Assembly: GCA_016462625.1 (NCBI GenBank)
Contig: JAEMSV010000002.1
Location: 1-64,000, forward strand
Origin: Solirubrobacteraceae bacterium
Lineage (GTDB): Bacteria; Actinomycetota; Thermoleophilia; Solirubrobacterales; Solirubrobacteraceae
Direction of reading: 5' to 3'
DNA length: 64,000 nt
Part shown: piece by piece, positions 3,287 through 48,336 of the stretch
Numbering within the stretch: the first letter of the stretch is position 1
Layout: every line of letters begins with the position of its first letter
Notes under the pieces: model-generated
Told to the model about the DNA's origin: nothing
Seen by the model: the letters and a program-made list of their open reading frames with translations, nothing else
Database searches by the model: none
Program-made: the position numbers and the translations under genes

Positions 3287-6016
3287 ATGTCTGACCTTCT
3301 GGTGGACAGGGAGCGCGAGCTGGCACGGCTCGACGCCGCGCTGCAGGGCGCCCGCATCGGGGCGGGAGCGGCGATCTGCCTGCGCGGACCCGCCGGCATC
3401 GGCAAGACCACGCTGCTGGACGCGATCGCCGATCGCGCGCCCGGGCTGGTCCTGCGCGCCGGAGGCGGCCGGCTGGAGCGAGACCACCCGCTCGGCGCGG
3501 TGCTGGAGCTCGTGGAGCCCGTCCTGGACGACCCGGCTCCCGGGATCGCGGCGGCGGCGGGCCCCGGGCTCATCGCGCTGGCATCGGGCGCCGGCGCGGC
3601 CGCGTCGATCCTGCCGCCCGCCGACGCGCGCATGACGATCGACCACGGTCTCCGGCGCCTCCTCGCGGCGCTCGGGCGTGAGCAGCCGGGCTGCCTCGTC
3701 CTGGTCGACGACGTCCACTGGCTGGACTCCGCGTCGGCGCGCGCGCTCGCGCACGCCACCCGCGCGATCACCGACGGCGGCGTGCTGCTCGTCTGCGCCG
3801 CGCGGCCGGAGGCCGAGGACGATCCGGCCGCCCGCGAGCTGCTGCGCCGTACGGAGATCCTCGAGCTCACCCCGCTGAGCCCCACGGGCATCGCGACCCT
3901 GGCCGTCCGCGCGCTCGACCAGGACGACGCCGGGGATCTCGCCCCGTCGCTCGAGGCGCAGACCGGCGGCAGCCCGCTGCTCGTCACGCGGCTGCTCGCC
4001 GACCTGCACCGCGCGGGCACCCCGGTCGACGCGGCCACCGTACGCACCGCCCGCCCTCCTGAGATCGCCGACGCGGTCGCCGCGCGGCTGGACGAACTTG
4101 GCGGCCCGGCCACGCGCCTCGCCGTCGCGGCGGCGGTGCTCGGGGACGAGACCGCGCTGCTACGGCGCGCGGCCGCGCTCGCCGACCTCCCCATCGACGA
4201 GGCGGCGCGCCTCGCCGCCCGGCTCGCGGCCGCCGACCTCCTCGCCCCCGGCGAGCCGCTGCGCTTCGCCCACCCGCTCGTGGCCGCGGCGACGCTCGAC
4301 CGCCTGCCCGAGACCGCGCGCACTGCCGCACACCTACGTGCCGCGCGGATCCTCGACGGCGACGGCGCCCGGCCGGCCGTGATCGCCGCCCGGCTGCTCG
4401 CCGCCACGCCGTCGGGCGAGGCGTGGGCCGTCGCCGCGCTGCGCACCGCCGGCGAGGAGGCACTCGCGCAGGGCGACCCCGCCGCCGCCGCCCGGCTGCT
4501 GCGCCGCGTGCTCGAGGAAGGGCCCGACCCGGCCACGCGCGCGGCGATCGCGTTCCCGCTCGCGCGCGCCGCGGCATTCGCCAACGACCCCGACGCGGCG
4601 GAGCGGATGGAGGACGCGCTCGCGTGCGCCCCGAACGCGGTCGCACAGGTCGCCGTGCTGCTCGACCGCGGCGACGCCCTCGTGGCCTCGGGCCGGCCCG
4701 CCGACGCACGCTCGGTGCTGGACCGCGCGCTCGAGCTCTCCGGCGACGGCGACGTGCCGCCCGAGCTGCGGGCCTACGCGGTCGTCACCGCGCACACCGC
4801 AGCGTGGGTCCACGGCCGGCCCTACGAGACCGACCGATCCCCGCCGCCCGACGAGCAGGTGGCCGCCGCCCGCGAGCTGGTCCGTGCGGCGACCCTGGCG
4901 CTGACCGGCACGGGGAGCGACGACGAGATCGCGGGCGCCGCCATCGGCGGGCTACGGACGCTGACCGGAATGGCGTACCTCGGCAGCGCTTTCCTCGCGA
5001 CGATGGCCCTCGGCGCCACCGACCGCCTCGACGACCTCGCGGCGCTGCTCACCGCCGGCGCCGAGTGGGCGGACGAGGTGGGCTCGCCGCTGGCCACGGG
5101 CTCCTGGGAGGGCGGCTTCGGGATCCTCGCGGGGTGGGTCGGCGACCTCGACGCCGCGGTCCGCCACTCCGAGCGCGCGATCGCCCTGGAGGCCGAGGGC
5201 TGGGATCGCCATGCACCCGCGGTCCGGGCGACGCTGGTCAACGCCCGGCTCGACCGGGGCGACCTCGCCGCCGCCCGGCAGGTCGCCGGGCACGACGGCG
5301 CTTGGGAGCGCCGGATCGACCATCCCTCGTTCCTGCACGCCCGCGCCCGCACGCAGTCCGGCGATGAGGCCATCGCGACCCTGCGCGCGGCAGGCGCGGA
5401 GGCGGAGGCCATCGGCGCGCGCAGCCCAGCGCTCCTGCCGTGGCGCGCGGACCTCGCGCTCGCGCTCGACCGGCGCGCCCCCGATGAGGCGCTCGCGCTC
5501 GCCGAGGAGCACCTCCGGCTCGCCGACACGCTCGGCACGCCCCGGGCCCGCGGCGTGGCCCTGCGGACCCTCGGGCTCCTCCGTCGCGACCCGGAGACGC
5601 TGCGGGAAGCCGTGGCGCTCGTCGCCGTGTCACCAGCCCGCCTCGAGCACGCCCGTGCCGAACTCGCCCTCGGCGAGGTGCTGCGGCGCGGCGGGCACCG
5701 CATCGACGCCCGTCAGCACCTCCGCTCCGCGATGCTGCGCGCCGAGACCTGCGGGGCTGCGGCGGTGGCCCACCGCGCGCACGAGGAGCTGCGCGCAGCA
5801 GGCGGGCGCGACCGTCGCGGCGCCGGTGACGGGCTCACCCCCGCGGAGCTGCGCGTCGCCGAGCTGGCGGCCGCCGGGCACAGCAATCCGGAGATCGCCG
5901 AGACCCTGTTCCTCGGCCGCCGGACGGTCGAGATGCACCTCTCGCGCGCCTACCGCAAGCTGAACATCACCGGCCGGGGCGAGCTGGCAGCCGCCCTGAC
6001 CGCGCGCGTCACTTGA
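3287..6016 (+). CDS. LuxR-family regulator with AAA ATPase domain (LAL/MalT-like)
   Basis: This 909-residue STAND-type regulator has a Walker A GPAGIGKT at residues 34-41 and a Walker B CLVLVDDVHW near 137-146. The middle is a long alpha-helical TPR-like region (about 350-830), and a LuxR helix-turn-helix occupies 849-909 (LTPAELRVAELAAAGHSNPE, then IAETLFLGRRTVEMHLS). Such proteins bind a ligand through the helical region, hydrolyse ATP and activate nearby genes. The target here is unknown; the divergent PD40 gene is the nearest candidate. It overlaps the 3' end of the convergent RTX gene by 8 bases. Confidence 0.9.
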   Translation: MSDLLVDRERELARLDAALQGARIGAGAAICLRGPAGIGKTTLLDAIADRAPGLVLRAGGGRLERDHPLGAVLELVEPVLDDPAPGIAAAAGPGLIALASGAGAAASILPPADARMTIDHGLRRLLAALGREQPGCLVLVDDVHWLDSASARALAHATRAITDGGVLLVCAARPEAEDDPAARELLRRTEILELTPLSPTGIATLAVRALDQDDAGDLAPSLEAQTGGSPLLVTRLLADLHRAGTPVDAATVRTARPPEIADAVAARLDELGGPATRLAVAAAVLGDETALLRRAAALADLPIDEAARLAARLAAADLLAPGEPLRFAHPLVAAATLDRLPETARTAAHLRAARILDGDGARPAVIAARLLAATPSGEAWAVAALRTAGEEALAQGDPAAAARLLRRVLEEGPDPATRAAIAFPLARAAAFANDPDAAERMEDALACAPNAVAQVAVLLDRGDALVASGRPADARSVLDRALELSGDGDVPPELRAYAVVTAHTAAWVHGRPYETDRSPPPDEQVAAARELVRAATLALTGTGSDDEIAGAAIGGLRTLTGMAYLGSAFLATMALGATDRLDDLAALLTAGAEWADEVGSPLATGSWEGGFGILAGWVGDLDAAVRHSERAIALEAEGWDRHAPAVRATLVNARLDRGDLAAARQVAGHDGAWERRIDHPSFLHARARTQSGDEAIATLRAAGAEAEAIGARSPALLPWRADLALALDRRAPDEALALAEEHLRLADTLGTPRARGVALRTLGLLRRDPETLREAVALVAVSPARLEHARAELALGEVLRRGGHRIDARQHLRSAMLRAETCGAAAVAHRAHEELRAAGGRDRRGAGDGLTPAELRVAELAAAGHSNPEIAETLFLGRRTVEMHLSRAYRKLNITGRGELAAALTARVT

Positions 6017-7199
6017 CGACGAGCTCGCAGTTCTTCGTCTTGTCCTTCTTGTCCTTGCGGATCCGATCGAACCCCGGGCCGCAGTCCGCCTTGTCGGCCA
6101 TGCCGCCACGGATGTTCACGTAGTCGTCGCCGGGGCCGGCGAACAGCCGGTCGATCCCGAACCCGCCGGTCATCGCGTCGTTGCCGAAGCCGCCGAACAG
6201 GAGGTCGTTGCCGCGATCGCCCGTCATCTCGTCGTCGCCGTCCTCGCCGTAGAGGCGGTCATCGCCCTTGCGGCCGAAGATGCGGTCGTTGCCGGCGCCG
6301 CCCTTGATGCGGTCGTTGCCGAGACCACCGTCGAGGTCGTCGGCGCCGCCGAGGCCTTCGATGAAGTCGTTGCCCGCGTTGCCGACGAGCGTGTCGCCGT
6401 CGCTGCCGCCGCGCATGTGGTCGTCGCCGGTGCCGCCGTTCTTCGACGGCTGATCCAGGCGGGACGCGATCTCGGTCAGCGCCGCCACGGCGCGCGGCCC
6501 GGCCGCTGCGACCGCCGGGATCTGAGCGACGTCGACGCGGCCGTTGAACCGGTTGTCGCGGGCACTCGGGTCACCGATGACCACCTGCTCGCAGTCCTCG
6601 ATCGCGTTTGGTCCCTTGCCGGCCTTCTCGTAGTCGGTCTCGACGTAGGCGATGTCGAAGCCCTCGCCGCAGTAGAGGTTGTCCGGCTCGGTGCCGCCGT
6701 ACAGCAGGTCGTCGCCGGGACCACCGTAGAGGCTGTCCGGCGCGCTGCCGCCGATCAGCGTGTCGTTGCCGGCCTCGCCGTAGAGGCCATCGGGTCCGCT
6801 GCCGCCGTTGACCGTGTCGTCGCCATCGCCGCCACGGACGTTGCCGTCCCGGCCGCGGTTCGCGTGGATGTAGTCGTTGCCGGGGCCGCCGTCGAACAGC
6901 CGGTCGTCGCCGAAGCGCTGCTCGACGATGAAGTCGTCGCCCTCGCCGCCGTACTGGGCGTCGTCACCGTCGCCGCCGTCGAGGACGTCGTTGCCCTCGC
7001 GCCCGTAGAGGATGTCGTTGCCCGAGTCCCCGTGCAGCTCGTCGTTGCCGCCTCGGCCGTCGATGTAGTCGTTGCCAGTCTCGCCGCGGATGACGTCGTC
7101 GCCGGCGCCGCCGAAGAGCCGCTGGGCCTGCCCGACCGCGACCGCGGCCGGGATCAGCAGCACGAGGGCGATGGCGGCGAGTGCGATCCGGCGCATCAC
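6009..7199 (-). CDS. Secreted RTX-type calcium-binding repeat protein
   Basis: The protein has 396 residues and opens with a Sec-type signal (RRIALAAIALVLLIPAAVAV). It then carries two blocks of RTX nonapeptides, for example GGAGDDVIRGETGNDYI and GGDGDDAQYGGEGDDFI, separated by a short non-repeat linker (about residues 190-250). A basic tail follows (KDKKDKTKNCELVVK). RTX repeats bind Ca2+ and fold into a beta-roll outside the cell. The start is GTG 7199 or ATG 7196; both overlap the stop of the upstream NAD-binding gene (GTGATG), so the two are translationally coupled. No type I secretion genes are nearby. Confidence 0.85.
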   Translation of the reverse strand: MMRRIALAAIALVLLIPAAVAVGQAQRLFGGAGDDVIRGETGNDYIDGRGGNDELHGDSGNDILYGREGNDVLDGGDGDDAQYGGEGDDFIVEQRFGDDRLFDGGPGNDYIHANRGRDGNVRGGDGDDTVNGGSGPDGLYGEAGNDTLIGGSAPDSLYGGPGDDLLYGGTEPDNLYCGEGFDIAYVETDYEKAGKGPNAIEDCEQVVIGDPSARDNRFNGRVDVAQIPAVAAAGPRAVAALTEIASRLDQPSKNGGTGDDHMRGGSDGDTLVGNAGNDFIEGLGGADDLDGGLGNDRIKGGAGNDRIFGRKGDDRLYGEDGDDEMTGDRGNDLLFGGFGNDAMTGGFGIDRLFAGPGDDYVNIRGGMADKADCGPGFDRIRKDKKDKTKNCELVVK

Positions 7200-9997: not shown

Positions 9998-10435
9998 ATG
10001 CGCGACGGCTACGAGATCTCCACGGACCGGTCCCGGCTGAACCTCGACGTCATCCATGGCTTCCTCAGCACGGAGGCGTACTGGTCGCCCGGCGTCCCCC
10101 GTGAGGTGACCGAGCGCGCCATCGCGAACTCGATCCCGTTCGGCGTCTTCGCCCCGGACGGCAGCCAGGCGGGCTTCGCGCGCGTCGTGACCGACCGGGC
10201 GATCTTCGCCTACATCGCCGACGTGTTCATCCTGCCCGAGCACCGCAGCCGCAAGCTCGGCGTGCTGCTCATCCAGACGATCCTCGAGCACCCGGACCTC
10301 CAGGGACTGCGACGGATCGAGCTGCACACGCTCGACGCCCACGGGCTCTACGAGCAGTGCGGGTTCGCGCCGCCGGTGCACCCGGGGCGGGCGATGGAGA
10401 TCCTGCGCAGCGCGGAGGAGCTCTACCGCATCTGA
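9998..10435 (+). CDS. GNAT-family N-acetyltransferase
   Basis: The 145-residue protein is a single GNAT domain. The acetyl-CoA loop is the RSRKLGVLLIQ segment (variant R-x-x-x-x-G/A, residues about 80-90), preceded by the beta strand AYIADVFILPEHR. C-terminal HTLDAHGLYEQCGF is the usual end of small GNATs acting on amines or peptides. The substrate cannot be inferred. Its 3' end overlaps the convergent HD-GYP gene by 13 bases. Confidence 0.85.
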   Translation: MRDGYEISTDRSRLNLDVIHGFLSTEAYWSPGVPREVTERAIANSIPFGVFAPDGSQAGFARVVTDRAIFAYIADVFILPEHRSRKLGVLLIQTILEHPDLQGLRRIELHTLDAHGLYEQCGFAPPVHPGRAMEILRSAEELYRI

Positions 10436-11526
10436 ATGGTCGCCGGCCCGTCGCTGATCAGCGCGACGTGGTCGAGGCCCTCGAAGGCGCGCATCACCCA
10501 GGGATCGAAGAACGTCCCGGTCATCGCCCGCATCTCGACGAGTGCCTCGGGGATCGGCATGGCGTCCTTATAGGGGCGCTCGTGGGTGAGCGCGTCGAAG
10601 ACGTCGGCGACCATCACGATCCGACTCTGCAGCGGGATCTGCTTCCCGGAGAGACCCGACGGGTAGCCCTGGCCGTCCCAGCGCTCGTGGTGCGTGGTCG
10701 CGATCGTCGCGGCGAGGCGCAGCGGCGCGGAGCCCGCACCGGCGAGGATGCGGCCGCCGATCGTCGTGTGGGTCTTGACGAGCTCGAACTCGTCGCGCGT
10801 GAGCTTGCCGGGCTTGAGCAGGACGGGGTCGGGGATCGCGACCTTGCCGATGTCGTGCAGCGGCGCGGCCTGACGGATCAGCTCCACCTCCTCGGCGTCG
10901 AGTCCCAGCACCGCCGCGAGCTGCGCCGCGATGCGGCCGACCCGCTCGGTGTGATGATGCGTGTCGTCGTCGCGGTACTCGGCGACCCGGGCGAGCCGCT
11001 CGAGCATCTCCATGTGTGCGCGTTCCAGCGCCTCGGTGCGCTCGGCGACGCTGTCCTCCAGCTCGGCGTTCTTCTCCGCGAGGGCGACCTCCAGCTGCCG
11101 CGCGCGGAGGATGTTGCTCGCCCGCAGACAGACCTCCTCGAAGTCGAACGGCTTACAGAGGAAGTCGTCGGCGCCGAGCGAGAGCGCGCGCCGGCGCGTC
11201 TCGATCGTCGTATCGGCGGTCAGCATGATGATCGGCATCCGGATGGAGTCGAACTCCGTCTGCCGGATGCGGCGCATGACCTCGAAGCCGTCGGGCGCCG
11301 GCATCTGGAAGTCGAGCATCAGCAGGTCCGGGCGCCAGCGCTGGACGAGGCCTTCGATCGCTGAGGAGTCGGTGGTGGACTTGATCTCCTCGAAGCCCCA
11401 GCCGCGCAGGATGCGGACGAGCAGCTCGACGTTGAACGGGGCGTCGTCGGCGACGAGGACTCGCATGGAGCGCACGTCGTCGGTGCTCGAGGCGGGAGAC
11501 AGGTCGTGGGCTGGGGCGGGCTCCAT
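10423..11526 (-). CDS. Response regulator with HD-GYP c-di-GMP phosphodiesterase domain
   Basis: From ATG 11526 the product has 367 residues. A receiver domain (MRVLVADDAPFNVELLVRIL, phospho-acceptor Asp in DLLMLDFQMPAPDG, conserved Lys in DDFLCKPFDFEEV) is followed by a coiled coil and an HD-GYP domain. The HD pair is in APLHDIGKVAIPD and the signature in RWDGQGYPSGLSGKQIP. It is predicted to hydrolyse c-di-GMP under phosphorylation control. No histidine kinase is adjacent. In-frame starts occur further upstream, up to 11628, but the N-terminal residues they add look non-conserved. Confidence 0.9.
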   Translation of the reverse strand: MEPAPAHDLSPASSTDDVRSMRVLVADDAPFNVELLVRILRGWGFEEIKSTTDSSAIEGLVQRWRPDLLMLDFQMPAPDGFEVMRRIRQTEFDSIRMPIIMLTADTTIETRRRALSLGADDFLCKPFDFEEVCLRASNILRARQLEVALAEKNAELEDSVAERTEALERAHMEMLERLARVAEYRDDDTHHHTERVGRIAAQLAAVLGLDAEEVELIRQAAPLHDIGKVAIPDPVLLKPGKLTRDEFELVKTHTTIGGRILAGAGSAPLRLAATIATTHHERWDGQGYPSGLSGKQIPLQSRIVMVADVFDALTHERPYKDAMPIPEALVEMRAMTGTFFDPWVMRAFEGLDHVALISDGPATIQMR

Positions 11527-11620: not shown

Positions 11621-12463
11621 CTACCCAACCGTGAGTGGCAGCCCGCGGAGCGTCCGCACGGTCTGCGGGATCGCGCCCCATTCGCGCGGGTGCGTCAGGT
11701 CCCATGCCGGGAGACCCGCCAGCGCGAGCATCGCCGCCGGGTCGGAGGCCAGCCCCGGCAGGGCCCGCCAGCGCGCGAGCCGCTGCAGGCGATCGGCGAG
11801 CCCGACGGGCGTGAGCGTCACGTCGTCGCCCGGGGAGAGGAAGACCCACGCGCCGAGCCGCGTCGTCGCGGCGACCGGCGATAGGGCGACGCGCCAGCGC
11901 TGATCACCGCGGGCCCGCCGGATATCGGCGCCGCCGTGCAGCTCGGGGCCGGGCTCGGCGCGGAGGTCGATGGTGCGCGGGCCCACGAAGACCCGTCCGT
12001 CCTCGATGACGAGCATGTCGTCGGCGACGATCGCACTGCCCGACGCGGCCAGCGCGGCCAGCAGCGTGCTCTTCCCGGCGAACTGCGACCCGAGCACGGC
12101 GACCGCGCGGCCCTCGTGCACGAACGCGCCGCCGTGGAACGCCTCGCGCCCGTGCCACCGGGCGAACAGGGTCGCGACCGGCCCGAGGTACGGATGCGCG
12201 AGTTCGTCCGGGTCGATCGGCGGGCCGAGGAAGCGGGCCACCGCGGGGGACCGCGTCGCCTCGAGCGTGTGCAACCCGTCGGCGAGATCGTTGACGTACC
12301 GATCGCCGTCGACGATCCGGACGCCGGACGGGGCGCTGCGCGGCGCCTGCTCGAGCCGCACCGACGGCCAGTCCGGGGCGATGTCGCGCGGGGCGGCGTC
12401 ACCGAGCGCGAGGCCATGGACGCGGAGCCCGTAGACGTGTGCGCTGGGTTCCGTGCGCTCCAT
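11621..12463 (-). CDS. HprK-like serine kinase of the lasso peptide cluster
   Basis: From ATG 12463 the protein has 280 residues. A P-loop AVLGSQFAGKSTLLAALA is followed by IVADDMLVIEDG, the acidic pair typical of HPr kinase/phosphorylase relatives. Only the kinase half of HprK is present. Homologues occur in lasso peptide clusters, where the paeninodin-type enzyme phosphorylates a serine near the C-terminus of the precursor. It is transcribed divergently from the precursor gene across 104 bases, which links it to the peptide. Whether it acts on Ser52 of the precursor is inference. Confidence 0.75.
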   Translation of the reverse strand: MERTEPSAHVYGLRVHGLALGDAAPRDIAPDWPSVRLEQAPRSAPSGVRIVDGDRYVNDLADGLHTLEATRSPAVARFLGPPIDPDELAHPYLGPVATLFARWHGREAFHGGAFVHEGRAVAVLGSQFAGKSTLLAALAASGSAIVADDMLVIEDGRVFVGPRTIDLRAEPGPELHGGADIRRARGDQRWRVALSPVAATTRLGAWVFLSPGDDVTLTPVGLADRLQRLARWRALPGLASDPAAMLALAGLPAWDLTHPREWGAIPQTVRTLRGLPLTVG

Positions 12464-12567
12464 GCGGTCGACACGGTACGAAACCGCCAAGCGGCAAGAC
12501 TTTCCCGAACACACCGGAAGTGGGTACGATCCCCGCCGAGCTTCGACGCGCCATCAAGGAGACCGGA

Positions 12568-12735
12568 ATGCAGAACCGTCACGAGCCGGATGCCGCAGCC
12601 TCGGCAGAGAGCGATCAGCCGGAGTACGTCGCGCCTGCCGTCACCGCGCTGGGCTCGCTCACGACCCTGACACAGGGTGGCCAAGGCGCCGCCATCGACG
12701 GGTTCGACGCCGACCAGGGTTCCATGCCGCTCTGA
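12568..12735 (+). CDS. Lasso peptide precursor
   Basis: The 55-residue precursor starts at ATG 12568 behind AAGGAG with 7-base spacing. The leader contains Y20, P23, V25, G29 and T35. If the leader ends at Q36 these are Tyr-17, Pro-14, hydrophobic -12 and Thr-2, exactly the positions read by lasso RRE proteins and peptidases. The predicted core is residues 37-55, GGQGAAIDGFDADQGSMPL. Gly1 and Asp8 of the core would form an 8-residue macrolactam ring with an 11-residue tail. Cleavage one residue later would give a 7-residue ring. The stop overlaps the cyclase frame. Confidence 0.85.
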   Translation: MQNRHEPDAAASAESDQPEYVAPAVTALGSLTTLTQGGQGAAIDGFDADQGSMPL

Positions 12736-13874
12736 GCACGCCCGCGCCGCTCACCGCGTTGGAGATCGCCAGCGGTCTCCCGCTGGGCACCCGCGGTGCC
12801 CCAACGTTCGATGGGGCATCCACGGACGCGGCGTCCGCGCTGCGGACCGCCGTGCGTGACGCGGTCCACCACCCGCCGTGTCTCGTGTCGTTCTCGGGCG
12901 GACAGGATTCGTCGCTGGTCCTCGCCGCTGCCGTGCAGGTCGCCCGGCGCGACGGCGTCGCCGACCCGATTCCCGCGACCTGGCGGGTCGCCGACGCGCC
13001 CGCCGCGCACGAGAGCGACTGGCAGGACGCCGTCGTCCGCGAGCTGGGGCTGGGCGACTGGCTGCGCCTCGACGGGGGCGATGACCTCGACCTCCTCGGC
13101 CCGGTGGCGCGCAGCGTGCTCTCCCGCCACGGGGCCCGGTACCCGGCCAACGTGCACATGCACGACCCGCTGCTCGAGCGAGCCCGCGGCGGCTCGCTGC
13201 TCACCGGCATCGGCGGAGACCAGATCTTCGGGGCTTGGCGCTGGGCAGCCGTCGCGGACGTCCTCGCCGGCCGCGTGCGCCGCACGCCCCGCCGCCTGCT
13301 CGCCATCGCCCGGTCGCGCGCGCCGGTGCCGGTGCGGGCGGCGCTGGAGCCCCGGCGCAATCCGCCCGAGCCCCGCGACTGGCTGACGCCGAAGACCGCC
13401 CAGACCCTGTCGGCCCGGCTCGCCGAGGAGATCGCGTCCGAACCGCCCCGCTGGGACCGGCGCGTCGGCTGGCAGGCCGGCCGACGGCACCTCGCCCTCG
13501 GGCTGGAGAGCCTCGACCTCCTCGCCGCCGACCACGACGTGCGGATCGGCCACCCGCTCGTCGCCCCCGGGGTCGTCGCGGCAGTGGCCCGCGCCGGCGG
13601 CCGGGACGGATTTGCCAGCCGTCGTCAGGCGCTCGCGACGCTGTTCCCCGGGCTGACGCCGGACGCGCTGCGCGAGCGAACGACGAAGGCGCACTTCCAC
13701 GAGGTCTTCCACCGCGGCCCGAGCCGGCGCGCGATCGCGGCCTGGCGCGGCGACGGGGTCGACCCGACGGTCGTCGACGTTCCTGCCCTGCAAGCGATCT
13801 GGCGCGACAGGATGCCGGCCGGCACCGCCCTGCTCCTGCAGCACCTGTTCGTCCGCGGGGCCCTCGGTGGCTGA
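12732..13874 (+). CDS. Asparagine-synthase-like lasso cyclase (no N-terminal amidotransferase half)
   Basis: The ATP-pyrophosphatase loop CLVSFSGGQDSSLVLAAA and the downstream LLTGIGGDQIFG identify an asparagine-synthetase C-terminal domain, which adenylates the ring Asp/Glu for macrolactam closure. The protein is only about 380 residues; most lasso cyclases carry about 200 more at the N-terminus as a vestigial glutaminase domain, absent here. The start is uncertain: no ATG fits. CTG 12732 overlaps the precursor stop as CTGA, and TTG 12759 is the next choice. An ATG at 12453 would overlap the precursor in another frame and is unlikely. The stop overlaps the PqqD gene start by 8 bases. Confidence 0.8.
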   Translation: MSTPAPLTALEIASGLPLGTRGAPTFDGASTDAASALRTAVRDAVHHPPCLVSFSGGQDSSLVLAAAVQVARRDGVADPIPATWRVADAPAAHESDWQDAVVRELGLGDWLRLDGGDDLDLLGPVARSVLSRHGARYPANVHMHDPLLERARGGSLLTGIGGDQIFGAWRWAAVADVLAGRVRRTPRRLLAIARSRAPVPVRAALEPRRNPPEPRDWLTPKTAQTLSARLAEEIASEPPRWDRRVGWQAGRRHLALGLESLDLLAADHDVRIGHPLVAPGVVAAVARAGGRDGFASRRQALATLFPGLTPDALRERTTKAHFHEVFHRGPSRRAIAAWRGDGVDPTVVDVPALQAIWRDRMPAGTALLLQHLFVRGALGG

Positions 13875-14133
13875 CCGCCTGCGGCTGCGCACCGACCGGC
13901 TCGTGTTCGAGCAGACCGGCGACGAGGTCGTCGTGCTCGACCTGCGGACCAGCAGCTACCTGGCGATCAACCACACCGGCCGCACGCTGTGGCCGCACCT
14001 GCAGGACGGCGCGACCCAGACGGAGCTGACGGCCATCCTCGTGGCGCACCACGGGACCTCCCAGGAGGTCGCATCCGCGGACGTCGACGCGTTCGTCGCG
14101 TCGCTCCGGGCGCTGGACCTCCTCGAGGGCTAG
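13867..14133 (+). CDS. PqqD-like RiPP recognition element (lasso B1 protein)
   Basis: The 88-residue protein from GTG 13867 has the PqqD/RRE layout: three strands (LRLRTDRLVFEQTGDEVVVL, then DLRTSSYLAINHTG) and a helical half (LWPHLQDGATQTELTAILVA, then DVDAFVASLRALDLLEG). RRE proteins bind the leader at its Tyr-Pro-Leu motif and deliver the precursor to the peptidase and cyclase. It overlaps the cyclase stop. The B2 transglutaminase-like peptidase, normally next to B1, is not here: the next gene starts 5 bases later on the other strand and is mrp. Confidence 0.88.
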   Translation: MADRLRLRTDRLVFEQTGDEVVVLDLRTSSYLAINHTGRTLWPHLQDGATQTELTAILVAHHGTSQEVASADVDAFVASLRALDLLEG

Positions 14134-23103: not shown

Positions 23104-24126
23104 TCAGGCGACGCGGGCGCGCCAGGCCGACGCGTCGGCCAGCTCGGCGGCGGTGGGGATCGCCTCGGGCTCGCTCCACGCGCGAGAGAGCAGCTCGACC
23201 CCGCCCAGCTCCACGACCGTGTCGCAGAAGGCGCGGCCTTCCTCGTACTGGCGCATCTTCAGGTCCAGGCCGAGCAGCCGGTCGACGAAGCGCAGGAGCC
23301 CCGAGCGCTCGGCGCGGCGGCGATCCAGCGCGGCGCGCAGGTCGGCGACGTTCGGCACCAGATCGCTCGCGACGACGTCCATCGCCCACTCGGCGTGGCC
23401 CTCGACGAGCGCCATCGTCGCCTGTACCTGATCGAGAACCTCGCCGCGGGCCGAACCCAGCAGCGTCGCGAAACCACCCTCGCGGACGGCGTCGACCGCG
23501 CCTTTCAGATCCTCCATCGACGGAATCCGGAGCAGCGCGCCCCAGTCGACATCGATATCCAGCGAATCGAGGAGCTCGTGCAAGAGTCCCGAGAGGTGCG
23601 GGCGCAGCCAGGTGACCGAGGAGAACTGGACCGCGTGTGTGACCTCGTGCAGCGCGATCCAGGTGAGCATCTCGCCGTGGTCGGCGTCGAGCCGCTCGGC
23701 GGCCGCGGCGATGTTGGGCGCAACGAACAGCAGCCGCGCGGGGACGTCGGGATCCGTGAGCGTCAGGTCGTACTGGCCGAGCACCCGGTTGGCGACCAGG
23801 CCGAGCAGCGCGCCTGCCTCGGCGGTCGCGATCCCCGCTGCCGCGGCGCGCAGCGGCCCGGACAGCGGGCCGCCATCACCGCCGGCCCTGTCACCGAGCG
23901 GCTGGAGCAGCCGCGACAGGCTCACCGCGTTGGCCTTGGCCCACGCCTCGCGGTCGATCCACTCCGGCGGCGGCAACGCCTGTGCCGGCGTCATGCCGGT
24001 CGCGCCGACGATCCGGTCGCGCGCGGTGTCGCAGACGGTGATCAGGTCCACGGGCGGGATGCCGGTCTCCCCGGCGCCGCCGGCGAGGGTGATGGCCATC
24101 TTGGCGGCGAGGTTGGGATCGAGCAC
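23104..24126 (-). CDS. Zinc-dependent metalloprotease-like protein (DUF2342, F420-associated family)
   Basis: From GTG 24126 the product has 340 residues and contains HEVTH at 160-164 (HExxH zinc site) within MLTWIALHEVTHAVQFS. This is the hallmark of the DUF2342/zinc-dependent metalloprotease family that tracks with coenzyme F420 in Actinobacteria. The N-terminal NLAAKMAITLAGG matches the family start, so GTG 24126 is preferred over ATG 24099. Proteolytic activity is unproven for the family. It follows the inositol-monophosphatase family gene by 11 bases and is likely co-transcribed. Confidence 0.85.
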   Translation of the reverse strand: MLDPNLAAKMAITLAGGAGETGIPPVDLITVCDTARDRIVGATGMTPAQALPPPEWIDREAWAKANAVSLSRLLQPLGDRAGGDGGPLSGPLRAAAAGIATAEAGALLGLVANRVLGQYDLTLTDPDVPARLLFVAPNIAAAAERLDADHGEMLTWIALHEVTHAVQFSSVTWLRPHLSGLLHELLDSLDIDVDWGALLRIPSMEDLKGAVDAVREGGFATLLGSARGEVLDQVQATMALVEGHAEWAMDVVASDLVPNVADLRAALDRRRAERSGLLRFVDRLLGLDLKMRQYEEGRAFCDTVVELGGVELLSRAWSEPEAIPTAAELADASAWRARVA

Positions 24127-28400: not shown

Positions 28401-29246
28401 ATGTCCAAAACCTCCCGTCGGGTGGCTTGCGCCGCCCTGCTCACAGCCGGCATCGCGCTCAGCGCCGCCGGCACCGCCAACGCCTATGACATGGGCACGG
28501 TCTACAGGTCGGGATCTGACCTCGTCTTCGTCCCGGCATCGTCGGCCACCCCCGCGACCGTCTACTTCACCAGCTCCAGCCGCGTCTACTCCGGAGGGGT
28601 CAACACCCTCACGGCCGGCCAGGGCTGCTCCCGCGACTTCAGCGGCCAGAACATCCAGTGCTCCAGCGGCGCCACGCGGCTCGTGGCCTATGGCAGCAAT
28701 GTCGGCGACGTGCTGAAGAACGCCACGTACCCGGCCGTGCGGTCCGTCTTCTTCGGCGGCGGAGGCAACGACACCCTCATCGGCTCGTCGGGCGCCGACG
28801 ATCTCTACGGCGACGCCGGGAACGACACGATCACCGGGGGCGAGGGCAGGGACTGGATGATCGGCGGCGCCGATTCGGACCTCGTCAAGTACGACGACCG
28901 CCCCTCCTACGTCCCGGTCACGGTGATCCTGGACGGCTCCGCGAACGACGGCGCGGCAGGCGAGGGCGACTTCGTCCAGAGCGAGAACGTGTACGGCGGG
29001 AGCGGCAACGACAGGCTCACGGGTGACGGTGCCGCGAACGTCCTGTACGGCGGCGACGGCAACGACGCCATCACGGGCCTGGGCGGCACCGACTACCACG
29101 CCGGCGGCACGGGCAACGACACGATCAGCGCACGCAACGGCGACAACGACATCGTCGACTGCAACCAGGGCACGGACCTCGCCTACCTCGACCGTTCGCC
29201 GCTGGACGCCAACCCCTCGGGCTGCGAGACCGCGCTCCGCGGGTAG
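28401..29246 (+). CDS. Secreted RTX-type calcium-binding repeat protein
   Basis: From ATG 28401 (AAAGG upstream) the product has 281 residues. A Sec signal peptide ends near TANA at residue 26. A non-repeat domain (about 27-120) with cysteines in GQGCSRDF and NIQCSSG is followed by RTX repeats such as GGGGNDTLIGSSGADDLYG and GGDGNDAITG. The protein ends NPSGCETALRG with a Cys pair, the tail form of many actinobacterial RTX-like proteins. It is probably an extracellular Ca2+-binding protein of unknown role, expressed from a dedicated promoter. Confidence 0.88.
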   Translation: MSKTSRRVACAALLTAGIALSAAGTANAYDMGTVYRSGSDLVFVPASSATPATVYFTSSSRVYSGGVNTLTAGQGCSRDFSGQNIQCSSGATRLVAYGSNVGDVLKNATYPAVRSVFFGGGGNDTLIGSSGADDLYGDAGNDTITGGEGRDWMIGGADSDLVKYDDRPSYVPVTVILDGSANDGAAGEGDFVQSENVYGGSGNDRLTGDGAANVLYGGDGNDAITGLGGTDYHAGGTGNDTISARNGDNDIVDCNQGTDLAYLDRSPLDANPSGCETALRG

Positions 29247-45136: not shown

Positions 45137-45515
45137 TTTGGTGTGAATCCGGGAAGAACCCCACGAAGAAGGCCGGGACGCCCAGCACCACGCATGCGAC
45201 GACGACGGCGGCAACTTGGGCCCACACGCGCTCCAAGACGCGGCCGATGCCCCAGCCCACCGCGAAGCAGACCACGATCGCGATCAGCAAGAGCACCCAG
45301 ACCGCCGTGAGGCCGCTCAGGGTGTGGTCCGCGGACACATCCTGCTGTCGCTGCTGAACGGACAGCACGAACGTCACGGGCACGATCGCGATGAGGATTG
45401 CCACCGTCCCGACGAGCCAGCGCCGCCGACCGCCCGCGCCGACAACCCGACCGAGCAGCAGGCTGCCCGGCATCGCAACGAGCGCGAGCAGCCACATCAC
45501 GGAATCCATCCTCAT
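44919..45515 (-). CDS. Membrane protein, C-terminal third apparently out of frame
   Basis: ATG 45515 overlaps the M48 peptidase stop (ATGA). The first 127 residues contain about four membrane helices (WLLALVAMPGSLLLGRVVGA, LVGTVAILIAIVPVTFVL, VWVLLLIAIVVCFAVGWGIG, VAAVVVACVVLGVPAFFVGF). After FFPDSHQN the frame turns into an Arg-rich shadow (ARVRLAARRRRSDRRARLAG) while a neighbouring frame becomes hydrophobic. This points to a frameshift or lost stop near 45120-45140. I do not recognise the family. Confidence 0.55.
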   Translation of the reverse strand: MRMDSVMWLLALVAMPGSLLLGRVVGAGGRRRWLVGTVAILIAIVPVTFVLSVQQRQQDVSADHTLSGLTAVWVLLLIAIVVCFAVGWGIGRVLERVWAQVAAVVVACVVLGVPAFFVGFFPDSHQNAVYRWARVRLAARRRRSDRRARLAGRSRSGPDPHRRGRVDLGRAPAARRLSRRGPARAVGRLGRGRAAPRA

Positions 45516-46495
45516 TCCTTGCGCAGCCACTCCGCGAGCTTCTCGCCCGTGCTCTGCACCTGCCCGCTCGCGTCGACCATCAGCTGCCGGAACCGCTCGG
45601 TGTAGTGCTCGGTCGCCGCGGCGGTCTCCTCACGCACCGGCGGCTCCTCGCCGCGCTTGACGTACTCGCCGCCGATGATCCGGTTGTAGTCACCGCTCTG
45701 CACCCACTTGTGGATCTCGTGCGCGCGCTTGACCGGCGGCGAGTGGGTCTGGCCGAGCTCGGTCATGAGCTTGCGGATCCGGTCGAACCCGTCGCCGCCC
45801 TCCCGGTAGTCCTGCGCCTGGCGCAGGAACGCGTCGAGGTTCAGCCGCTCGGACGGGAGGCCCGCCGAGATCGCCATGAGCGTCCGGCTGGTGAGCAGCG
45901 GGTCGCGCGTCACGATCGTCGCGCACCGGTCGCAGCTGTACTCCGCGGCGCGGTACCACTCCAGCAGCGCGTACCGGATCCCGAGCAGCGGCAAGCCGGC
46001 GAAGATCGGCAGCGCCCGCATGCCGAGATCGAGCAGGATCGCGAGCGCCGTCTGGTACATGACATGGCCCGAGAGGATGTGGCCCGCCTCGTGGGCGAGG
46101 ACCATCTCGAGCTCGTCGTCGTCGAGGATCTGCGCGGCCTCGCTGCTGACCACGACGATCGGCTTCTTCGCGCCCATCGCCATCGCGTTGGGCAGCGGCG
46201 ACATCCCGACGTAGAGGTCGGGGCGGTCCTCGATGTCGAGGACCGTGCAGACGCGGACCCAGCGCTGGTGCAGCTCGGGCAGCTGGTCCGGGCCGACCTT
46301 CAGCGAGGCCGACAACGTGCTCTGGCGGATCGCGCGCTCGTAGCCGAACTCGATGAGGCGCTTGATGACGGTCTCGAGCATCGGGATCGAGCCGAGCGCC
46401 GCGGTGGCGGCGCGGTCGGCCGGATGCTCGAAGGCCTTCGAGGAGATGTTCGGGAGGCGGTAGCCGTCCGCGGGAAGATCGGAGGTGGCGGTCAC
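45512..46495 (-). CDS. M48-family zinc metallopeptidase
   Basis: The 327-residue protein starts at GTG 46495. The zinc site HEAGH is in LEMVLAHEAGHILSGHVMYQ, and the third ligand lies in the YRAAEYSCDRCATIV segment. A hydrophobic region (ALAILLDLGMRALPIFAGLP) suggests membrane association. N-terminal residues about 1-110 include VRVCTVLDIEDRPDLYVGMS, typical of the HtpX/M48 actinobacterial type. It may degrade or process membrane or surface proteins. It lies 10 bases after the SGNH gene in a multi-gene operon. Confidence 0.88.
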   Translation of the reverse strand: MTATSDLPADGYRLPNISSKAFEHPADRAATAALGSIPMLETVIKRLIEFGYERAIRQSTLSASLKVGPDQLPELHQRWVRVCTVLDIEDRPDLYVGMSPLPNAMAMGAKKPIVVVSSEAAQILDDDELEMVLAHEAGHILSGHVMYQTALAILLDLGMRALPIFAGLPLLGIRYALLEWYRAAEYSCDRCATIVTRDPLLTSRTLMAISAGLPSERLNLDAFLRQAQDYREGGDGFDRIRKLMTELGQTHSPPVKRAHEIHKWVQSGDYNRIIGGEYVKRGEEPPVREETAAATEHYTERFRQLMVDASGQVQSTGEKLAEWLRKE

Positions 46496-47377: not shown

Positions 47378-47566
47378 TCAGACCGCGCCGAGCGCGATGA
47401 GCCAGATCAGCCCGGAGACGAGCGAGACGAGCAGCAGGTAGATGCCCATCTCGCGGTCGTTCTCGATGAACCGCCACAGCGCGAGGAAGATCCCTGCCAG
47501 CGGCAGGACGATCGCGATGGCGTACGGGAAGAAGGCGACGAGCCGTTCCTTGATCGATTCGTTCAT
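47378..47566 (-). CDS. Small two-helix membrane protein
   Basis: The 62-residue protein has two membrane helices (AFFPYAIAIVLPLAGIFLAL and MGIYLLLVSLVSGLIWLIAL) joined by a short charged loop (WRFIENDRE). I do not recognise a function. The ATG overlaps the stop of the TSUP half gene (ATGA), so it belongs to the same operon. Confidence 0.85.
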   Translation of the reverse strand: MNESIKERLVAFFPYAIAIVLPLAGIFLALWRFIENDREMGIYLLLVSLVSGLIWLIALGAV

Positions 47567-47955
47567 CGCGCGGGAGTATCGCCGGTCGGGGCCTGCGGGG
47601 TCCGCAGGGCGTCACGGGCGAGATGCGCGGCGACGTACACCAGGAGCGCCGCGAACCCGAGCTCCAGCGCCCGCTCGGGGACCGCGTTGGCGACCACGAC
47701 GCCGCCGACCGCCCCGGCGATCGCCAGGACCCCGAGCAGGAGCGCGTCGCGGTCGCGCACGTTGCCGTAGCCGCGCTGCCGCCACGTGCCGACCAGGGCG
47801 ACGGGCACGATCGCGAGCAGCGACGTCGCCTCGGCCTCGACCTGGCCGAGCCCGACGAAGAGCGTCAGCGCGGGGACGAACAGCGAGCCGCCGCCCACGC
47901 CGAGCATTCCGGCGATCACGCCGGCCAGCACGCCGATGAGAACCGCCTCGATCAC
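47563..47955 (-). CDS. TSUP (TauE/SafE) permease, C-terminal-half-like protein
   Basis: From GTG 47955 the product has 130 residues and four predicted helices. It begins IEAVLIGVLAGVIAGMLGVG then GGSLFVPALTLF, the TauE/SafE repeat motif. Normal TSUP transporters have about 250 residues with two such repeats in one chain; here only one is present. The gene overlaps its upstream partner by GTGA, so the two products probably assemble. TSUP proteins export sulfite, sulfoacetate or other organosulfur anions. Confidence 0.85.
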   Translation of the reverse strand: MIEAVLIGVLAGVIAGMLGVGGGSLFVPALTLFVGLGQVEAEATSLLAIVPVALVGTWRQRGYGNVRDRDALLLGVLAIAGAVGGVVVANAVPERALELGFAALLVYVAAHLARDALRTPQAPTGDTPAR

Positions 47956-48323
47956 CCGATCACCATCTGCACGGCGACACCCACGAGCACAACGCTGAAC
48001 GCCAGCGCGATCGCCTTCTGCGGCACCCGCTGCTGCAGCCACGTCCCGGCGAGCACGCCGCCGATTGCGGGAATTCCGACGAGCAGCCCGTCGGCGAAGT
48101 CGACGTTGCCGTAGCCCGCGTGCGTCGCCACGCCGACGGCCGCGATGAGCACGATCGCCGCGAGCGACGTGCCGGTCGCTTCGCGCGCCTCGTAGCCCAT
48201 CCACACCATCAGCAGCGGCACCATCACGACCCCGCCGCCGACCCCGAACAGGCCGCTGAACAGGCCCGCGAGGGTCCCGATGACCGCCAGCCTGGCGGTC
48301 CTTCCCGCGGGGGTCGCGACCAT
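47952..48323 (-). CDS. TSUP (TauE/SafE) permease, N-terminal-half-like protein
   Basis: From ATG 48323 the product has 123 residues with about four helices. The TSUP motif is LAVIGTLAGLFSGLFGVGGG then VVMVPLLMVWMGY. ATG 48323 is selected because a TAGTAT box lies exactly 7 bases upstream (leaderless); ATG 48332 is less likely. It is the first gene of a coupled operon running through the other TSUP half, the small membrane protein, the SGNH hydrolase, the M48 peptidase and the odd membrane gene. Confidence 0.85.
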   Translation of the reverse strand: MVATPAGRTARLAVIGTLAGLFSGLFGVGGGVVMVPLLMVWMGYEAREATGTSLAAIVLIAAVGVATHAGYGNVDFADGLLVGIPAIGGVLAGTWLQQRVPQKAIALAFSVVLVGVAVQMVIG

Positions 48324-48329
48324 GCGCGG

Positions 48330-48336
48330 CATACTA
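48330..48336. promoter_or_regulatory. Back-to-back -10 boxes between TSUP and trehalose-phosphatase genes
   Basis: CATACTA reads CATACT on the plus strand, 7 bases before ATG 48343, and TAGTAT on the minus strand, 7 bases before ATG 48323. Both mRNAs would start at their start codons. The seven bases are identical to those at 25005-25011. Confidence 0.55.

What the first reader, a model, noticed from the sequence alone, without database searches (positions are those of the whole stretch)
11621..14133. Compact lasso-peptide cluster with kinase, cyclase and RRE but no B2 peptidase or transporter
Four genes form a lasso locus: HprK-like kinase, precursor, Asn-synthase-like cyclase and PqqD/RRE protein. 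Standard bacterial lasso clusters encode B1 and B2 (or fused B) and usually an ABC exporter. Here B1 is followed 5 bases later by mrp, and no transglutaminase-like protease or exporter appears in the 64 kb. The leader may be cut by a peptidase encoded elsewhere, or by a different enzyme class.
Basis: partly seen in the sequence, partly recalled or inferred. Interest (0 to 1): 0.8.

Follow-up and report, generated by a model that had tools for sequence, protein, structure and literature searches.

The report
Lasso-peptide cluster missing its leader peptidase
An actinobacterium carries a compact set of genes for a knotted 'lasso' peptide that looks intact but has no gene nearby for the enzyme that normally cuts the peptide free; relatives show that this enzyme is sometimes encoded elsewhere in the genome, so it is probably a split version of a known system.

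Summary
Window 11621-14133 encodes an HprK/PEPCK-fold kinase (-), a 55-aa precursor, a short cyclase and a PqqD/RRE (B1) protein. The precursor passes NCBIfam's lasso-leader cut-off; leader and Asp8 recur in relatives. No B2 was found in the 64 kb by six-frame profile search, and no ABC exporter in 50 of 57 other predicted genes. Intergenic gaps leave no room for a B2 remnant.

Of 42 relatives with at least 4 kb on both sides, 33 have B2 within 8 kb and 9 do not. For 7 of those 9 loci the genome has a B2 elsewhere; M. lupini has A, C and kinase at 3.83 Mb but B1-B2 at 5.70 Mb. Three genus-level kin lack both cyclase and B2, so the cluster was gained in the window's lineage or lost in theirs.

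Best reading: a split lasso locus with B2 in trans (0.6). Rivals: a dead locus, or another protease. The window's own genome is not held, so the decisive search could not be run.

The parts
11621..12463 (-). HprK/PEPCK-fold kinase, 280 aa, divergent from the precursor; predicted to phosphorylate a Ser near the peptide's C-terminus
   Evidence: 98 relatives; H110, K131, D148, D149 invariant in 42 aligned sequences; AlphaFold pLDDT 94.1; Foldseek PEPCK E 1e-8, HprK E 1.7e-5
12464..12567 (.). 104-bp divergent intergenic region, presumed promoter region
   Evidence: sequence; no promoter scan was run
12568..12735 (+). lasso precursor, 55 aa; leader to TQ(36), predicted 19-residue core starting Gly1 with ring acceptor Asp8
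   Evidence: NF033521 20.7 bits, cut-off 19; sequence and core mass; relatives
12735..13874 (+). short lasso cyclase (C), synthetase domain only; start at TTG 12759 or CTG 12732
   Evidence: PF00733; matches positions 231-308 of 517 of asparagine synthase; 317 relatives at E <= 1e-3, the 120 listed 341-465 aa; model pLDDT 93.9 aligned to the synthetase part of asparagine, beta-lactam and carbapenam synthetases
13867..14133 (+). B1: PqqD-like RiPP recognition element, 88 aa, overlaps the cyclase stop
   Evidence: PF05402 E 3.2e-13; lasso PqqD NF033530 47 bits, below its cut-off of 70

Best explanation
A split lasso-peptide locus. Inferred steps: B1 binds the leader; the kinase phosphorylates a Ser near the C-terminus of the linear precursor; a B2 cysteine peptidase encoded elsewhere in the genome, guided by B1, cuts after Thr(-2)-Gln(-1); the short cyclase adenylates Asp8 and joins it to Gly1, giving an 8-residue ring threaded by the tail (predicted [M+H]+ 1788.79, or 1868.75 if phosphorylated). 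Shown here: the genes, the domain limits of the cyclase, precursor conservation, and absence of a detectable B2 in 64 kb. Not shown: any B2 in this genome, any product.
For: Intact reading frames, tightly packed; gaps of about 94, 104 and 5 bp leave no room for a decayed B2. B2 is over the PF13471 cut-off in 44 of 49 genomes searched that hold this cyclase (37 of 39, 7 of 10 further ones), against 1 of 14 control genomes. Of 9 well-flanked relatives without B2 within 8 kb, 7 have it elsewhere: M. lupini (A, C, kinase at 3.83 Mb; B1-B2 at 5.70 Mb with no cyclase in 19 kb), M. humi and M. sonchi (a second complete cluster), L038's genome (a lone B2 in 20 kb), L019 and L036 (one genome, B2 on other contigs), L027. 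The two without any B2 (L006, L014) also lack a detectable kinase and precursor, unlike the window. Precedent read in passages: the citrulassin deiminase is unlinked to its lasso cluster (PMC8498205).
Against: The genome is not held, so no B2 has been seen. Three genus-level kin have no B2 over the cut-off and no such cyclase, so B2 would have to have come separately. In several MAG precedents the lone B2 lies near a contig end (G018 C532, G022 C42, G039 C297, G488 C207), so assembly gaps may imitate a split. Genomes with the cyclase and no B2 over cut-off exist (G006, G014, G062, G407, G217). None of the 9 nearest database cyclases (P0002-P0006, P0009-P0012) has a known gene context.
Confidence: 0.6

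Rival explanations
1. The locus has lost B2 and no longer makes the peptide; it is a recently acquired or relict cluster whose other genes have not yet decayed.
For: Three genus-level kin lack the cluster and have a GGDEF gene between the GNAT gene and mrp instead, so it is not fixed in the genus. Relatives without B2 in the genome are eroded: L006, L014, and G062, whose cyclase frame holds a TAG.
Against: All four window frames are open, with overlapping or abutting genes and no B2 remnant.
Confidence: 0.22
2. The leader is removed by another protease class, or cyclisation needs no dedicated peptidase: general proteases free the N-terminus and the small cyclase closes the ring.
For: Seen in reference lists by title only: pseudomycoidin made in vivo without leader and leader peptidase (Zyubko 2019, not held) and a bifunctional peptidase/ABC transporter for cochonodin I (Hegemann 2021). 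B1 need not imply B2: BsfB1 speeds the kinase reaction (passage of PMC10368454). Many other RiPP proteases are encoded outside their clusters (passages of PMC10885120).
Against: No candidate beside the cluster: no C39 or ABC protein among the scanned genes; the Zincin_2 (23104-24126) and M48 (45512-46495) genes are 9 kb or more away. The T(-2) leader motif recognised by B1-B2 is kept. Most relatives searched use B2.
Confidence: 0.15
3. Not a lasso peptide: kinase, synthetase and RRE make another kind of modified peptide.
For: The cyclase lacks the N-terminal domain and PF00733 enzymes do other chemistry; several relatives' cores do not begin with Gly.
Against: Lasso leader over the curated cut-off; Gly1 and Asp8 in 15 of 15 Micromonosporaceae precursors; B2 next to the same cyclase in 33 of 42 well-flanked relatives.
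Confidence: 0.03

Closest known systems
Micromonosporaceae lasso clusters with the same short cyclase (e.g. L007 M. matsumotoense, L022 M. lupini)
   Same: Precursor, C, B1 and kinase homologous; Gly1/Asp8; sister group of the window's cyclase clade (100/100)
   Different: Usually a B2 beside the kinase; an ABC-2 transporter between A and C in L007; M. lupini has B1-B2 1.87 Mb away
Solirubrobacter clusters (L039, L050, L053), ordered B1-B2-C with a convergent kinase (L050's contig ends inside the cyclase)
   Same: Same gene families
   Different: B2 lies between B1 and C; predicted acceptor spacing differs
Paeninodin/ThcoK-type phosphorylated lasso peptides (passages of PMC8498205 and PMC9266682)
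   Same: HPr-kinase homologue with His-Lys-Asp-Asp residues; kinase acts on the linear precursor
   Different: Those kinases act on the C-terminal Ser; here Ser is fourth from the end. Full set of B1, B2, C and transporter there
Microcin J25 and fusilassin systems (canonical A, B or B1+B2, C, often D)
   Same: A, B1 and C functions
   Different: No B2 or D here; cyclase without the N-terminal domain (that canonical cyclases carry it is recalled)

Membership tests
Lasso peptide biosynthetic cluster | Precursor with leader motif and Thr(-2), Asp/Glu at core 7-9 | tested here: met
   NF033521 over cut-off; T(-2), Gly1, Asp8
Lasso peptide biosynthetic cluster | RRE (B1, PqqD-like) | tested here: met
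   PF05402 over cut-off; the specific lasso PqqD models are hit below their cut-offs
Lasso peptide biosynthetic cluster | Asn-synthetase-like cyclase (C) | tested here: met
Lasso peptide biosynthetic cluster | B2 transglutaminase-like peptidase in the cluster | tested here: not met
   Six-frame profile search of the 64 kb: best 12.1 bits
Lasso peptide biosynthetic cluster | B2 somewhere in the genome | not testable with these tools
   Genome not held; the contig is recorded as 138,365 bp but only 64,000 are readable
Lasso peptide biosynthetic cluster | Threaded macrolactam product | not testable with these tools
   Needs mass spectrometry or NMR
Canonical full-length lasso cyclase | N-terminal glutaminase-like domain before the synthetase domain | tested here: not met
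   Only positions 231-308 of 517 matched; 371-379 aa
Lasso precursor kinase (PadeK/ThcoK type) | HprK-like fold with His-Lys-Asp-Asp residues | tested here: met
   Invariant H110, K131, D148, D149; fold; which His is catalytic is inferred
Lasso precursor kinase (PadeK/ThcoK type) | C-terminal Ser in the substrate | tested here: not met
   The core ends Ser-Met-Pro-Leu, so Ser is fourth from the end

The most novel reading that the evidence does not exclude
A self-sufficient lasso pathway without any C96 peptidase: B1 serves mainly the kinase, the leader is removed by an unrelated or housekeeping protease, and a minimal synthetase-only cyclase closes and threads the ring.
Probability: 0.13. Interest if true: 0.7.

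Novelty: new variant of a known kind. Interest (0 to 1): 0.4.

Why it matters
Genome-mining tools that look for B2 beside C can miss or mis-score such loci. The M. lupini arrangement (B1-B2 1.87 Mb from A, C and kinase) makes a testable case of B proteins acting in trans. The synthetase-only cyclase, found across many actinobacteria, is the smallest lasso cyclase form I know of (recalled, not searched exhaustively) and a convenient object for asking what the N-terminal domain does.

Tried and rejected
A hidden or decayed B2 inside or between the cluster genes: no space, and no profile hit beyond noise. B2 fused to the kinase or cyclase: none of the 218 protein hits then held scored above 7 bits with the B2 profile.

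Reading B2 linkage from contig lengths in the protein database: only 120 of 1331 B2 hits were listed; none of the listed ones has the contig length of the window (138,365) or of P0002, P0004 or P0010. This is inconclusive. Lengths shared by cyclase and kinase hits (5,113; 8,772; 1,141,054) suggest that those pairs lie on one contig.

Finding the nearest relatives' genomes: class sample of 399 (11 hits), whole order of 232 (12 hits) and another order of 129 (1 hit) gave none closer than 46% overall, apart from a partial match at 55% over 205 residues (G034). Composition: GC is 0.73-0.77 over much of the cluster against about 0.67-0.74 around it, too small a difference to argue from.

Literature: seven searches on lasso B2, kinase, cyclase, Thermoleophilia, in-trans and pseudomycoidin terms listed no paper whose title or abstract start describes lasso loci with B2 in trans or synthetase-only cyclases. 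Most subscription papers are not held, and I read only passages of five papers.

Counts: loci whose best cyclase hit was 100 bits or less (L062, L063, L064) were left out; cyclases at 250 bits or less or with stops were left out of the tree (58 rows of loci plus window, 15 database proteins). In one search, 19 further loci with short flanks: 11 with B2, 8 without. One precursor motif hit in L008 was dropped as a chance match; L119's precursor lacks Ser in its last four residues. PF13471 was searched in 49 genomes, not in all relatives. L034 and L036 lie on one contig. The shuffle test of the loss/presence label on the tree shows no strong clustering (26-31 of 500 shuffles as low). The empty cyclase search of three kin has no positive control of its own.

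Full report
What is there. Four genes occupy 11621-14133: a kinase on the minus strand, then on the plus strand a 55-aa precursor, a cyclase and a PqqD-like B1 whose start overlaps the cyclase stop. The stop of mrp on the other strand is 5 bases beyond B1. Domain searches identify Asn_synthase and PqqD above curated cut-offs and the lasso leader NF033521 just above its cut-off, 20.7 against 19 bits. The kinase is weak by sequence, but the 42-member alignment keeps H110, K131, D148 and D149 invariant and the model (pLDDT 94.1) matches PEPCK (E 1e-8) and HprK (E 1.7e-5) structures. PMC9266682 (passages) reports a His-Lys-Asp-Asp motif needed in lasso kinases; equating it with these four residues is my inference.

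The precursor. The leader reads YVAPAVTALGSLTTLTQ and the predicted core GGQGAAIDGFDADQGSMPL, with Thr at -2, Gly1 and Asp8. Among Micromonosporaceae loci, 15 of 15 precursors found beside this cyclase family have Gly1 and Asp8, and 14 of 15 have Ser in the last four residues, one chance motif hit being left out. Elsewhere in the family the first residue and spacing vary. A leader-plus-acceptor pattern occurs once in the window; one of 100 block shuffles gave a hit.

What is missing. A B2 profile (38 sequences) run without filters over six frames finds nothing beyond a 12.1-bit, 30-residue hit (E 0.0086) overlapping the ferredoxin gene; B2 proteins beside homologous cyclases score 46-145 bits. 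A simple codon-usage gene caller gave 60 genes; Pfam on 50 of the 57 outside the cluster shows no ABC-transporter domain and no transglutaminase-like peptidase. Two relatives checked have ABC-2 transporter genes near the cluster.

Relatives. A scan of genome contigs returned 64 loci. Of 42 relatives with at least 4 kb on either side of the cyclase, 33 have B2 within 8 kb and 9 do not: L006, L008, L014, L019, L022, L027, L036, L038, L057. Whole-genome searches find PF13471 over cut-off in 44 of 49 cyclase-bearing genomes, against 1 of 14 controls. Seven of the nine loci lie in genomes with a B2 elsewhere. The firmest case is M. lupini, one 7.08-Mb contig: A, C and kinase at 3.83 Mb, and B1-B2 alone in 19 kb at 5.70 Mb. 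M. humi and M. sonchi hold a second complete cluster. L038's genome has a lone B2 in 20 kb of a 61-kb contig. The MAG cases G018 (one of its two B2s) and G022 have B2 at contig ends and are weaker. L006 and L014 have no B2 in their genomes and also no detectable kinase or precursor.

Where the window sits. These have no homologous cyclase (E <= 0.001) and no B2 over cut-off (best 17.3 bits in a large frame). Flanking genes align, but the slot between the GNAT gene and mrp holds a GGDEF gene instead. The cluster was therefore gained in the window's lineage or lost in the others. The cyclase tree places the window with nine database proteins (100/97), the nearest being P0002-P0006, and with the Micromonosporaceae at 100/100; the gene context of those nine is unknown, which is the main gap on the comparative side.

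Mechanism. Most likely (0.6) B1 delivers the precursor to a B2 encoded elsewhere; the kinase acts first on the linear peptide, as reported for paeninodin (passages); the cyclase then closes Gly1 to Asp8. That B1 can serve the kinase as well is reported for BsfB1 (passage), so B1's presence alone does not prove a B2. A dead locus (0.22) and a different or no dedicated protease (0.15) remain open. Genes and conservation are shown; every catalytic step is inferred.

Verdict.

Noticed in passing
L022 and L118 (M. lupini): B1-B2 pair lies 1.87 Mb from A, C and kinase in one chromosome-sized contig, with no cyclase in the 19 kb around it.
   Followed up: partly
L019, L034/L036, L059, L122 (one Acidimicrobiaceae MAG, G018): Several separate short-cyclase loci in one genome, some with A and C but no B1 or B2 nearby: perhaps several precursors sharing B proteins.
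   Followed up: partly
L101 (G062): B1-cyclase-kinase locus whose cyclase frame contains a TAG, with no PF13471 hit in the 2.0-Mb genome: looks like decay.
   Followed up: no
window 47563-48332 (-): A TauE/SafE permease is spread over two adjacent ORFs matching profile positions 1-113 and 125-237.
   Followed up: no
window 6009-7196 and 28422-29246: Two proteins with RTX-type calcium-binding repeats.
   Followed up: no
L115, L116, L117: Genus-level kin carry a GGDEF gene in the slot where the window has the lasso cluster; the HD-GYP gene 10423-11526 also has a moved counterpart in L117.
   Followed up: partly
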